Assembly: GCA_035063765.1 (NCBI GenBank)
Contig: JAPSFT010000005.1
Span: 1-64,000 of the forward strand
Source: Deltaproteobacteria bacterium
Lineage (GTDB): Bacteria; Myxococcota_A; UBA9160; PR03
Length of the DNA stretch: 64,000 nt
Direction of reading: 5' to 3'
The notes under the pieces are model-generated. The model worked only from the letters and a program-made list of their open reading frames with translations. It was not told the DNA's origin and ran no database searches. Made by a program: the position numbers and the translations under genes. Positions 1 through 7,332 of this stretch are shown in pieces (the first letter of the stretch is position 1; each line of letters opens with the position of its first letter).

Positions 1-1542
1 GTGGCCTCCGCCGACGAGCCCTTCAGCCAGTACGGCCTGCTCGCCGAGAGCGTGCAGACGCCGGCCGACCGCTCGTGGGTGCTCTTCACGCTGCGCCCCG
101 AGGCGCGCTGGCACGACGGCCGCCCGATCACCCCCGCGGACGTGATCTGGACCTTCCAGACGCTCCTCGACAAGGGCCAGCCCTTCTTCCGCTTCTACTA
201 CGGGAGCGTCGACCAGGTCGAGCAGCGCGGCGAGCGGGGCGTCTACTTCCACTTCGCGCCGGGCACGAACCGCGAGCTGCCGCTGATCCTGGGCCAGCTC
301 CCGGTGCTCCCGAAGCACTGGTGGGCGACCCGCAGCTTCGACGCCGTGAGCCTCGAGCCGCCGCTCGGGAGCGGCGCCTACAAGATCGCGAAGTTCGAGG
401 CCGGACGCTTCGTCGAGTACGAGCGGGTGCCCGACTACTGGGGCCGGGACCTGCCCGTGAACCGCGGCCGCGAGAACTTCGACGTGCAGCGCTACGAGTA
501 CTTCCGCGACGCTACCGTCGCCCTCGAGGCCTTCAAGGGCGACCAGTACGACTTCCGGCTCGAGAACAGCGCGAAGGACTGGGCGACCGGCTACGACGTG
601 CCGCCCGTGCACGACGGCCGGATCGTGAAGCAGGAGGTTCCGCACGAGCGGCCGGCCGGCATGCAGGGCTTCGCGATGAACCTGCGCCGGCCCGTGTTCC
701 AGGACGCGCGCGTGCGCGAGGCGCTCGCCTTCGCCTTCGACTTCGAGTGGGAGAACCAGACCCTCTTCTACGGCCAGTACACGCGTACGCGTAGCTACTT
801 CGAGAACTCGGAGCTGGCCGCACGCGGGCTCCCCGGGACGGCCGAGCTGGCGCTGCTCGAGCCCTTCCGCGGGAAGATCCCCGAGGAGGTGTTCACGACG
901 GAGTACCAGCCGCCGGCGACGGACGGCTCGGGCAACAACCGCGACAACCTGCGCCGCGCCGCCGAGCTCTTCAAGGCGGCCGGCTGGCAGGTGGCCGGCG
1001 GGAAGCTCGTGAAGGACGGCCAGCCGCTGGCCTTCGAGATCCTGCTCCCGAGCGCGCAGTTCGAGCGCGTGGTCCTGCCCTACAAGGCGAACCTCGAGAA
1101 GATCGGGGTCACCGCCTCGGTCCGCACCGTCGACACCGCGCAGTACAAGCGCCGGATGGACACCTTCGACTACGACATGACGCTCTCGGTGTTCCCCCAG
1201 TCCGACTCGCCCGGCAACGAGCAGCGCGACTTCTGGGGCAGCGAGGCCGCCGGGCGCGAAGGCAGCCGCAACACGATCGGGATCCGGGACCCCGCCGTCG
1301 ACGCGCTGGTCGAGCAGGTCATCGCGGCACCGGACCGGGCGAGCCTCGTGGCCGCGTGCCGCGCGCTCGATCGCGTGCTCCAGTGGGGCCACTACGTCGT
1401 GCCGAACTGGTACATCGCGAGTGACCGGATCGCCTACTGGAACCGCTTCGGGATGCCCTCGCTGGTTCCCAAGAACGGCCTCCAGCTCGACGCCTGGTGG
1501 TGGGACGCGGGGAAGGCGGCGGCGCTGGAAGCGAGGCGCTAG
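1..1542 (+). CDS. ABC transporter substrate-binding protein, family 5 (5' end missing)
   Basis: This is the periplasmic solute-binding subunit of the downstream YejBEF-type importer, which takes up peptides or oligopeptide-like molecules. The 513 visible residues show the family 5 (OppA/DppA/YejA) pattern: an early 'LRPEARWHDGRPITPADVIWT' type block near residues 30-50, then the 'ALAFAFDFEW' block near residue 240. The reading frame is open at base 1 and there is no signal peptide, so roughly the first 80-100 residues lie outside the window; the GTG at base 1 is not a credible start. The stop lies 9 bases before the permease gene, which indicates one operon. Substrate specificity cannot be read from sequence. 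Confidence 0.9.
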   Translation: MASADEPFSQYGLLAESVQTPADRSWVLFTLRPEARWHDGRPITPADVIWTFQTLLDKGQPFFRFYYGSVDQVEQRGERGVYFHFAPGTNRELPLILGQLPVLPKHWWATRSFDAVSLEPPLGSGAYKIAKFEAGRFVEYERVPDYWGRDLPVNRGRENFDVQRYEYFRDATVALEAFKGDQYDFRLENSAKDWATGYDVPPVHDGRIVKQEVPHERPAGMQGFAMNLRRPVFQDARVREALAFAFDFEWENQTLFYGQYTRTRSYFENSELAARGLPGTAELALLEPFRGKIPEEVFTTEYQPPATDGSGNNRDNLRRAAELFKAAGWQVAGGKLVKDGQPLAFEILLPSAQFERVVLPYKANLEKIGVTASVRTVDTAQYKRRMDTFDYDMTLSVFPQSDSPGNEQRDFWGSEAAGREGSRNTIGIRDPAVDALVEQVIAAPDRASLVAACRALDRVLQWGHYVVPNWYIASDRIAYWNRFGMPSLVPKNGLQLDAWWWDAGKAAALEARR

Positions 1543-1551
1543 CCCGCGCGC

Positions 1552-2655
1552 ATGGGGGCCTACGTCGTCCGCCGCCTCCTGCTCGTGATCCCGACCCTGT
1601 TCGCGATCATGCTCGTGAACTTCGCGGTCGTGCAGGTGGTGCCGGGGGGGCCGATCGAGCAGATCCTGGCCCGTCTCGAGGGCACCGCGGTGGGCGCCAC
1701 CTCACGCGTCTCCGGTGGCGGCGGCGAGCTCGCTCCGGCCGGGCCGGCCGCGCCGGGCGGCGGCGGCCCCTCGCGCTACCGCGGCGCCCAGGGCCTCGAC
1801 GCCGAGTACATCGCGCGTCTCGAGAAGGAGTTCGGCTTCGACCAGCCGCCCTGGAAGCGCTTCCTCGAGATGATGCGCCGCTACCTCCTCTTCGACTTCG
1901 GCAAGAGCTACTTCCGCGACAAGCCGGTGATGGAGCTGGTGCTCGAGCGCATGCCGGTGTCGATCTCGCTGGGCCTGTGGACGACGCTCCTCGTCTACGC
2001 GATCTCGATCCCGCTCGGCGTTCGCAAGGCCGTGCGCGACGGCTCGCGCTTCGACGTCTGGACCAGCGGTGTCGTGATCGCCGGCAACGCGATCCCCTCC
2101 TTCCTGTTCGCGATCTTCCTGGTCGTGGTCTTCGCCGGCGGGCGCTACCTCGACTGGTTCCCGCTGCGCGGCCTCGTCTCCGAGAACTGGCGCGAGCTCT
2201 CCTTCCCGCGCCTGGCCCTCGACTACCTGTGGCACATGGTGCTGCCGGTCACGTCGATGGTGATCGGCGGCTTCGCCTCGCTCACGATCCTGACCAAGAA
2301 CTCGTTCCTCGACGAGATCCACAAGCAGTACGTGACGACCGCGCGCGCCAAGGGGCTCGGCGAGCGGCAGGTGCTCTACGGGCACGTCTTCCGCAACGCG
2401 ATGCTGATCGTGGTGGCCGGCTTCCCGGCGGCCCTGATCGGGATCCTCTTCGCGAGCTCGCTCCTGATCGAGGTGATCTTCTCGCTCGAGGGGCTCGGGC
2501 TCCTCGGCTTCGAGGCCGCGATCAACCGCGACTACCAGGTGATGTTCGGGACGCTCTACGTCTTCACCCTGATGGGCCTGGTGCTGGGCCTCGTCGCCGA
2601 CCTCACCTACACCTTCGTGGATCCCCGGATCGACTTCGAAGGGCGCGAGGTCTAG
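1552..2655 (+). CDS. yejB: ABC transporter permease, YejB-like
   Basis: Inner-membrane permease subunit of an oligopeptide/microcin C-type importer, 367 residues. It opens with a typical N-terminal membrane helix ('[18 protein letters not shown]') and has the Gly-rich loop followed by '[20 protein letters not shown]' (about residues 80-100), which is characteristic of YejB. The inner-membrane permease signature region lies around residues 250-290 ('[21 protein letters not shown]'). It starts 9 bases after the binding-protein stop and ends 3 bases before the next permease, so it is translated as part of the operon. The close YejB match makes the family assignment firm; the transported substrate is unknown. 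Confidence 0.93.
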
Positions 2656-5373: not shown

Positions 5374-6846
5374 ATGACCCGAACCATCCTGCGCGCCCTG
5401 GGTCTCCTGCTCTCGTTGCTCGTGCTCGCGGCGGTCGTCCTGACCCTGCGCGCGCTGCGCCTGCCCTCGCGCCAGGTCTCGGTGCCGCCGGCACCCGCGC
5501 GCGCGGTCGACGCCGAGCGGGTGGCCGCGCACCTGGCCGAGGCGATCCGGATCCCGACGGTCATCACCTCACCCGACCCCGCAGAGCTCGAGGCCGAGCC
5601 CTTCCGCGCCTTCTCGGCCTGGCTTGCGGCGACCTACCCGCGCCTGCACGGGGCACTCGCGCTCGAGCGCGTCTCCGGCCACTCGCTCCTCTACACCTGG
5701 CAGGGGAGCGACCCCGCGCTCGCGCCGCTGCTCCTGCTCGCGCACCAGGACGTCGTGCCCGCTGGCAATCCCGAGCGCTGGACGCATCCGCCCTTCTCGG
5801 GCGCGATCGCCGAAGGCCAGGTGTGGGGGCGCGGCGCGATCGACGACAAGGGGGCGCTCGTCACGATCTGCGAGGCGGTCGAGGCGCTGCTCGCCGAGGG
5901 CTACGAGCCGCGCCGCACCGTGATCCTGGCGTTCGGCCACGACGAGGAGGTGGGCGGGCCGAGCGGCGCGGTGAAGATGGCCGAGCGCCTCGCCGCGCGC
6001 GGCGTGCGCCCGGCGCTCGTCCTCGACGAGGGCTACGTGCTGCTCGAGCCCGGTACGGTGCCGGGCTTCGACGGCCCGGTGGCTCCGATCGGTGTCGCCG
6101 AGAAGGGCTATGCGACGCTCGCGGTGGTGGCGCGTGCGGCCGGCGGCCACTCCTCGACGCCGCCGCGGCGGACGGCGACCGGCGCGCTGGCGCGTGCGAT
6201 CACGCAGCTCGAGGAGCACCCGTTCCCGATCTCGGTGGGCGGCGTCACGGGCTCGTTCTTCGCGTGGCTCGCCCCCGAGCTGCCGCTCCCCGGCCGGGTC
6301 GCGCTCGCGAACGCCGACCTGCTGGCGCCGCTCCTGTCGGAGGCCGTCCGCCGCGAGCCCGGCGTGAACGCGCTCCTGCGCACGACCACCGCGGTCACGA
6401 TGCTCTCCGGCTCGCCGAAGGAGAACGTCCTGCCGGTCGAGGCGCGCGCGCTCGTGAACTTCCGCATCCTGCCCGGCGAGACGGGTGAGAGCGTGCTCGC
6501 ACGCGTCCGCGAGACGGTCGCGGCGCCCGACGTCGAAGCGCGCTTCGAGGGCGAGCACCGCGATCCGAGCCCGGTGTCCCCGAGCGACGGTCCTGCTTTC
6601 ACGCTGCTCCAGCGCACGATCGGGGAGCTCTTCCCCGGCGCCGTCGTGGCGCCCGCGCTGGTCGTGGGCGGGACCGACGCGAGGAGCTACCACGTCGTCG
6701 CCGACGCCGTCTACCGCTTCGGCCCCTTCCGCTTCGGCCCCGCCGACATCAAGCTCCCCCACGGCATCGACGAACGGATCGCCATCGACAACCTCGGCAC
6801 CGCCGTCCGCTTCTACGCCCGCCTGATCGAGAACGCCAGCCTCTGA
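5374..6846 (+). CDS. M20 family metallopeptidase, membrane-anchored
   Basis: Probable dinuclear zinc amino-acid/dipeptide hydrolase (M20; carboxypeptidase S-like), 490 residues. An N-terminal hydrophobic segment (about residues 5-25) suggests a membrane anchor or signal. Zinc ligands are visible in HQDVVP (about 124), GRGAIDDKG (about 155), the catalytic/metal GHDEEVGG (about 188) and a late LPHGIDER near the C-terminus. The ATG is preceded by a strong ribosome site (GGGGGAGG, 5361-5368). It follows the Yej importer by 34 bases, which fits hydrolysis of imported peptides. Its TGA stop is the first triplet of the perfect inverted repeat at 6844-6942. Confidence 0.9.
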   Translation: MTRTILRALGLLLSLLVLAAVVLTLRALRLPSRQVSVPPAPARAVDAERVAAHLAEAIRIPTVITSPDPAELEAEPFRAFSAWLAATYPRLHGALALERVSGHSLLYTWQGSDPALAPLLLLAHQDVVPAGNPERWTHPPFSGAIAEGQVWGRGAIDDKGALVTICEAVEALLAEGYEPRRTVILAFGHDEEVGGPSGAVKMAERLAARGVRPALVLDEGYVLLEPGTVPGFDGPVAPIGVAEKGYATLAVVARAAGGHSSTPPRRTATGALARAITQLEEHPFPISVGGVTGSFFAWLAPELPLPGRVALANADLLAPLLSEAVRREPGVNALLRTTTAVTMLSGSPKENVLPVEARALVNFRILPGETGESVLARVRETVAAPDVEARFEGEHRDPSPVSPSDGPAFTLLQRTIGELFPGAVVAPALVVGGTDARSYHVVADAVYRFGPFRFGPADIKLPHGIDERIAIDNLGTAVRFYARLIENASL

Positions 6847-6942
6847 GGGGGACAGACCCGGCGATCCGGCGATTCTCTGGACGCTTCCGCCCTCGGCTCG
6901 GCTCCTCGTAGAATCGCCGGATCGCCGGGTCTGTCCCCCTCA
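6844..6942. repeat. Perfect 33-bp inverted repeat containing both stop codons
   Basis: Bases 6844-6876 and 6910-6942 are exact reverse complements, separated by a 33-base loop. The left arm begins with the TGA stop of the M20 gene, and the right arm ends with the reverse-complement stop of the MAPEG gene. The arms contain GGGGACAGACCC near their outer ends, a sequence of the kind found in REP-like palindromes mobilised by RAYT transposases (known pattern; attribution here is inference). It could act as a bidirectional terminator, but there is no T-tract. I saw no second copy in the window. Confidence 0.85.
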
Positions 6943-7332
6943 GGCGAGCCAGAGGAGGCCGATGCCGCAGGCGAGGCCGGCGAGGAAGGCGAGGGAGCGG
7001 AGGACGTCGAGGTTCGCGAGGTAGGCGATGGGGTGCACGATGCGGGTGGCGAGGAAGCCGAGCGAGAGGTTGGCGGCCGTGGCGCCGCGCGCGGCCTCGG
7101 GGTTGGCGAGGTGGAGCACGACCACCGCCGCCGTGAAGAAGCCGAGCGCCTCCCAGGCGTTGGCCTGGGCGGCGTAGGCACGCGCGCCGGCACCCTCGAG
7201 CTTCATGGCCTGCAGGCGCGGGTGCTTGTTGTCGATCCCACCGAGCTGACGCATGCGGAAGTAGCCGCCCGAGAAGGAGAGCACGTAGGGCAGCAGGGCG
7301 ACGATCACGAGGCACCAGAGCGGGGTCGTCAC
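6940..7332 (-). CDS. MAPEG family integral membrane protein
   Basis: Small four-helix membrane protein of 130 residues, of the MAPEG type (membrane proteins of eicosanoid/glutathione metabolism; bacterial members have unproven activity). Visible family features are 'LGGIDNKHPRLQAMKLEG' in the first loop, then 'ANAWEALGFFTAAVV' and a final 'LATRIVHPIAYLANLDVLRS' helix with the conserved R-x-x-H-x-x-x-Y-x-x-N arrangement. I chose the GTG at 7332 because an AAGGAG site sits 8 bases upstream; a longer frame exists but lacks such a site. It is convergent with the M20 gene and shares the inverted repeat. Confidence 0.85.
   Translation of the reverse strand: MTTPLWCLVIVALLPYVLSFSGGYFRMRQLGGIDNKHPRLQAMKLEGAGARAYAAQANAWEALGFFTAAVVVLHLANPEAARGATAANLSLGFLATRIVHPIAYLANLDVLRSLAFLAGLACGIGLLWLA

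What the first reader, a model, noticed from the sequence alone, without database searches (positions are those of the whole stretch)
6844..6942. Perfect 33-bp inverted repeat that supplies the stop codons of two convergent genes
Both arms are identical over 33 bases and include the TGA of each gene. The unusual precision over such length means either very recent insertion or gene conversion. The outer GGGGACAGACCC recalls REP elements moved by RAYT transposases. It may be a small non-autonomous mobile palindrome that landed at the junction and trimmed both C-termini.
Basis: partly seen in the sequence, partly recalled or inferred. Interest (0 to 1): 0.5.

Follow-up and report, generated by a model that had tools for sequence, protein, structure and literature searches.

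The report
Mobile palindrome between two converging genes
The long perfect palindrome between two converging genes is one of dozens of similar small repeats in this bacterium, probably spread by one matching transposase gene elsewhere in its genome; it is a new example of a known kind of bacterial mobile repeat that tends to sit right behind gene stop codons.

Summary
The inverted repeat is real: two perfect 34-bp arms (6843-6876, 6910-6943), 33-nt loop. It belongs to a dispersed family: GGGGACAGNCCCGG occurs 77 times in this genome (reversed control 0), 0 times in the same-genus genome G001 and 0-3 times in 58 other relatives. The genome has one Y1 (RAYT-type) transposase gene, bounded by the same arms facing inward. 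G001 and the more distant G030 carry different dispersed families (64 and 124 arms) that match the ends of a RAYT gene of their own. A RAYT-linked mobile palindrome is therefore well supported; movement itself was not seen.

It resembles the published "TIRtron/TIRYT" type, arranged as REPIN-like doublets, and lacks the GTAG tag of classical REPs. "Trimmed both C-termini" is not supported for the MAPEG gene (same length and stop in two relatives without the element) and open for the M20 peptidase (variable tail, 4 and 1 residues shorter). The shared part of the element (6848-6938) excludes both stop codons.

Elements of both species end within 8 nt of a stop codon far more often than random intergenic positions. 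Arms match within copies while copies differ, so perfection does not date the insertion.

The parts
6843..6876 (+). left arm of the perfect inverted repeat (34 bp, includes flank CTGAG 6843-6847)
   Evidence: shared arm starts at 6848
6910..6943 (-). right arm, exact reverse complement of the left arm
6877..6909 (.). 33-nt loop; loops differ between copies
6848..6938 (.). miniature element proper: two inward-facing terminal repeats of the RAYT family
5374..6846 (+). M20 family peptidase gene (start predicted); stop TGA 6844-6846
6940..7332 (-). MAPEG family gene (start predicted); stop TGA is the complement of 6940-6942

Best explanation
The feature is a miniature non-autonomous element made of two inward-facing copies of the terminal inverted repeat of a single RAYT-type Y1 transposase gene (G000 contig C7, L051:862-1863, minus strand). 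The transposase probably acts in trans on the single-stranded hairpin and inserts copies elsewhere, in the manner of IS200/IS605; this copy went in between two convergent genes, right beside their stop codons. Shown: copy number, identity with the RAYT ends, near-absence in relatives, junctions without it. Inferred: that this transposase moves it, the single-stranded route, and that arm identity is kept by hairpin-templated correction or selection for pairing rather than by recency.
For: 77 arms in this genome, reversed control 0, none in same-genus G001. One Y1_Tnp gene over the cut-off between inward-facing arms of the family, with NHFHL and RYVHLNP motifs. G001: 64 arms of another sequence equal to the ends of its own RAYT, 0 in G000 and three other genomes. 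G030: 124 arms equal to the ends of one of its RAYT-like genes, 0 in five other genomes. Junction without element in G001 and G002. Only PDB sequence match is TnpArep, 4er8, E 0.0022.
Against: No movement was observed. The RAYT scores 78.8 bits against NCBIfam REP_Tyr_transpos with a cut-off of 80. 27 of 49 sites show one exact arm only; two of these are the RAYT's own ends and some lie at contig ends. The two arms at the RAYT differ from each other at one base. The family could be old and immobile today.
Confidence: 0.85

Rival explanations
1. The palindrome is mainly a host control element behind stop codons (acting on translation or mRNA as E. coli REPs are said to do), kept by selection; mobility is only its origin.
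For: The stop lies within 8 nt of the element in 31 of 49 3'-flanks in G000 and 23 of 39 in G001, against 7.9% of random intergenic positions. PMC12306157 (passages) cites earlier work that REPs fewer than 16 nt from a stop codon lower translation.
Against: The families are not shared between two genomes of one genus, and genes flanked here do well without an element in relatives. No functional data.
Confidence: 0.1
2. A shared bidirectional transcription terminator of the two convergent genes.
For: Strong hairpin between convergent stop codons.
Against: No terminator-like site in 6700-7100 on either strand (that scan asks for a loop of 3-8 nt and a T run); the sequence is a dispersed family, also at 5' flanks of genes (20 of 73 scored arms).
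Confidence: 0.03
3. Insertion trimmed the M20 peptidase and some other genes, with the stop codon brought by the element or made at the junction.
For: Nine gene ends were compared with G001: four are shorter here, by 4 (focal M20), 8, 1 and 9 residues. CTCTGA ends 8 of 31 genes that abut an arm and 0 of 51 other window genes; TCTGA 12 of 31 against 1 of 51. Three of the four compared CTCTGA ends are among the shorter ones.
Against: Five of nine ends have equal length, among them the MAPEG gene and one CTCTGA end where G001 has CTGTGA. Tails are variable; against G002 the M20 and C25:47587 ends are only 1 residue shorter. The distance from stop to arm varies.
Confidence: 0.25

Closest known systems
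TIRtron / TIRYT families (Di Nocera et al. 2013, PMC3733652; abstract, sections 15 and 16 and the first part of section 17 seen)
   Same: RAYT-like gene bounded by terminal inverted repeats that are not GTAG REPs; GGGGACAG fits the reported GGGGWSAS motif; the repeats also occur as a moderately abundant dispersed family in doublets.
   Different: New sequence and host. The G001 (GGGGTCGG) and G030 (GGGGACGG) ends do not fit GGGGWSAS at the seventh base.
REPIN, REP doublets forming hairpins (Bertels and Rainey 2011, PMC3116915; passages seen; author names recalled)
   Same: Two inverted short repeats with a variable spacer forming a long hairpin, linked to a RAYT; compensatory changes between the two sides.
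   Different: No GTAG-type REP; the arms here equal the ends of the RAYT gene's own element.
E. coli TnpA-REP and its REPs (PMC8266576, passages seen; structure 4er8)
   Same: Y1 transposase relative with the HUH motif; extragenic palindromes, many near stop codons.
   Different: No constant GTAG tag; weak sequence match (E 0.0022); protein of 333 residues against a 165-residue chain.

Membership tests
TIRtron / TIRYT | Y1 transposase gene flanked by terminal inverted repeats unrelated to GTAG repeats | tested here: met
   L051: arms at 908 (+) and 1980 (-) around the gene at 862-1863 (-); the left arm lies inside the long reading frame
TIRtron / TIRYT | GGGGWSAS motif in the repeat (shared by some, not all, of that type) | tested here: met
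   GGGGACAG read by eye against the motif given; not met by the G001 and G030 ends
TIRtron / TIRYT | the same repeats dispersed as singles, dimers or groups | tested here: met
   75 arms in 49 sites: 27 single, 18 of two arms, 4 of three
RAYT protein | Y1_Tnp domain with HUH and catalytic tyrosine | tested here: met
   PF01797 43.8 bits, cut-off 23; NHFHL and RYVHLNP seen in the sequence, role of these residues recalled
RAYT protein | NCBIfam REP_Tyr_transpos curated cut-off | tested here: not met
   78.8 bits, cut-off 80
REPIN | inverted doublets forming a hairpin | tested here: met
   17 simple inward doublets and 4 within triplets, of 49 sites
REPIN | excision or movement of the doublet | not testable with these tools
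   no reads and no second strain
GTAG REP | constant GTAG at one end of each unit | tested here: not met
   outer flanks of 75 arms vary
intrinsic terminator | short-loop hairpin followed by a T run | tested here: not met
   0 sites in 6700-7100

The most novel reading that the evidence does not exclude
The RAYT prefers translation-stop context (about (C)TCTGA) as its target, so its miniature elements land just behind genes by choice of target and not only by selection; and whole RAYT/repeat systems are replaced between species of one genus, each new family taking up the same kind of landing site.
Probability: 0.15. Interest if true: 0.55.

Novelty: new member of a known kind. Interest (0 to 1): 0.3.

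Why it matters
It adds a clean transposase/terminal-repeat system in an uncultured lineage. Two genomes of one genus carry mutually exclusive repeat families, each equal to the ends of its own transposase gene. That is a good natural pair for asking whether RAYTs move their repeats, how arm identity is kept inside each copy, and why such repeats sit beside stop codons. In itself the focal palindrome is ordinary.

Tried and rejected
Chance: rejected. Terminator: no T run found and the family is dispersed. Stop brought by the element on the MAPEG side: rejected by equal length and TGA in two relatives. GTAG-type REP: no constant tag. A scan of the 84,980-species collection for the 28-nt arm with two ambiguous positions found 0 stretches; the tool says records of the own genome, or of one very near it, may be left out.

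Shared landing sites: one junction (G000 C13:1443, G001 locus L261) carries an element of each family. I took this as possible by chance for 49 and 37 sites, by a rough estimate only; no test was run. Tree of RAYT proteins: my motif filter kept 8 of 23 and the tree was unresolved, so whether the G000 and G001 genes are orthologous is not settled; they share 47% identity over 196 residues and no DNA match between their loci was listed. A first alignment of the three junctions had G002 in the wrong orientation and was replaced by reading the sequences. A paper search on ribosome stalling gave mostly unrelated papers.

Limits: gene ends come from a reading-frame method of my own, not from annotation. 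2 of the 77 G000 arms were not fetched; 2 of 75 G000 arms and 2 of 64 G001 arms were dropped for short flanks. Arms were collected by exact match to a 14-base core, so doublets with a diverged second arm count as single and the concordance test sees only the other positions. The random-insertion yardstick comes from one 64-kb window. Flanks of two arms of one site are counted apart.

Full report
Observation. The inverted repeat exists: 34-bp perfect arms at 6843-6876 and 6910-6943 with a 33-nt loop, folding far more stably than 200 shuffles (z -13.8). It fills the gap between an M20 peptidase gene (+, stop 6844-6846) and a MAPEG gene (-, stop at 6940-6942).

A dispersed family. GGGGACAGACCCGG occurs 41 times in the genome, 20 and 21 on the two strands, reversed control 0. 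With any base at the ninth position it occurs 77 times, 38 and 39. Of 59 relatives searched, 46 have none and 13 have 1-3; the same-genus genome G001 has none. I read 75 of the 77 arms. They form 49 sites: 27 with one arm (two of these are the RAYT's own ends), 17 simple inward doublets, one pair in the same direction, 4 triplets. 17 of the 49 sites lie within 120 bp of a contig end, so some single arms are assembly breaks. The part common to copies runs about 28 bp inwards from GGGGACAG; the loop varies. The outer CTGAG that lengthens the focal arms is therefore flank.

The transposase. The genome has one match to Y1_Tnp (PF01797), over the cut-off. Its 333-residue reading frame has NHFHL and RYVHLNP; that these are the HUH and tyrosine motifs is recalled and agrees with PMC3733652. 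It scores 78.8 bits against NCBIfam REP_Tyr_transpos, just under the cut-off of 80, and its only PDB sequence match at E up to 0.01 is TnpArep, 4er8, E 0.0022. The gene lies between two arms of the family facing inward, as in the miniature copies; these two arms differ from each other at one base, and the left one lies inside the long reading frame.

Reciprocal specificity. Among relatives, 26 further RAYT-like loci were searched for inverted repeats; by my reading of the listing, 21 have a pair of arms around the gene (20 of them G-rich, such as GGGGACG, GGGGTCG, GGGGCCG, GGGACAG), and 5 have none listed. G001's RAYT ends, GGGGTCGGGTTGGA, occur 64 times in G001 and 0 times in G000, G002, G003 and G004. 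The ends of one of G030's RAYT-like genes occur 124 times in G030 and 0 times in five other genomes, one of them of its own genus. In these three genomes the dispersed palindromes equal the ends of a transposase gene of the same genome. This is the strongest evidence for the RAYT link; movement itself was not seen.

Junctions without the element, and C-termini. In G001 and G002 the same two genes converge with gaps of 34 and 13 bp and no element. The named record L132, Proteobacteria bacterium isolate PRO3, reads like G002 at this junction. The MAPEG protein ends at the same place in focal, G001 and G002, with TGA in all three. The M20 protein ends ENASL here, ENASTIPGL in G001 and ENAAAR in G002, and varies in other relatives. 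Seven further gene ends were compared with G001: four have equal length (C6:110175, C10:28973, C13:34520, C13:34629) and three are shorter here (C38:19143 by 8; C13:1443 by 1, where G001 has an element of its own; C25:47587 by 9, but only 1 against G002). With the two focal genes, nine ends: five equal, four shorter here. Insertion thus often leaves gene ends alone, but trimming in some cases is not excluded.

Stop-codon adjacency. By a simple reading-frame method, 49 of 73 scored arms face the 3' end of a gene, 20 a 5' end, 4 unclear. In 31 of the 49 the stop lies 0-8 nt outside the arm (in two of them its last base is the arm's first G), in 35 within 20 nt, in 7 inside the element. In G001, 39 of 62 scored arms face a 3' end; the stop is within 8 nt in 23 and inside the element in 4. 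Random intergenic positions beside a 3' end in the window are that close in 7.9% of cases and within 20 nt in 17.6%. This is a rough yardstick from one window and my own gene calls. There is precedent: PMC3733652 (section 15) says most convergent REPs of two species lie under 20 bp from both genes and that GTAG termini often give the stop codon; PMC12306157 (passages) cites ribosome stalling by REPs within 15 nt of a stop, and itself finds only about 11% of its E. coli REPs that close. Stops abutting G000 arms read TCTGA in 12 of 31 against 1 of 51 other window gene ends (Fisher p 1.7e-5) and CTCTGA in 8 of 31 against 0 of 51. I cannot explain this: it may be a target preference or be carried by some copies.

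Arm identity. In 21 paired G000 copies the arms differ at 3 positions in all over 28 nt, against 23.4 when right arms are shuffled among copies; in 26 G001 copies at 0 over 22 nt against 20.2; none of 10000 shuffles was as low in either case. Copies differ from each other while each mostly matches itself. Because arms were picked by an exact 14-base core, doublets with one diverged arm are missed. PMC3116915 (passages) reports compensatory changes in REPIN hairpins.

Filing. It meets the described features of TIRtron/TIRYT families and of REPIN-like doublets and fails the GTAG tag; the G001 and G030 ends do not fit the GGGGWSAS motif, so that motif is not general here. I call it a new member of a known kind. 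I made no paper search for this exact sequence.

Noticed in passing
G001 loci L231, L236-L271: The congener has its own family of nearly perfect hairpins (26 paired copies, 81-88 bp, 0-2 mismatches by half) starting CGTCAAGAAAGGGGTCGGGTTGGA, matching its own RAYT ends.
   Followed up: partly
L216 about 1416-1443 and L261 1501-1561: One and the same gene junction carries an element of the G000 family in G000 and of the G001 family in G001.
   Followed up: partly
31 gene ends abutting arms in G000: Stops beside arms have an excess of TCTGA and CTCTGA over other gene ends in the window.
   Followed up: partly
G000 contig ends, e.g. C8:51, C11:43, C16:4, C43:45: 17 of 49 repeat sites lie within 120 bp of a contig end; the palindromes seem to break the assembly.
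   Followed up: no
L051 862-940: The RAYT reading frame runs through its own terminal repeat; the focal 29-nt arm has no stop in six frames, and 7 of 49 genes facing an arm read into the element.
   Followed up: no
L011, L026, L045, L224: Four sites have three arms, with a tandem extra arm beside a doublet.
   Followed up: no
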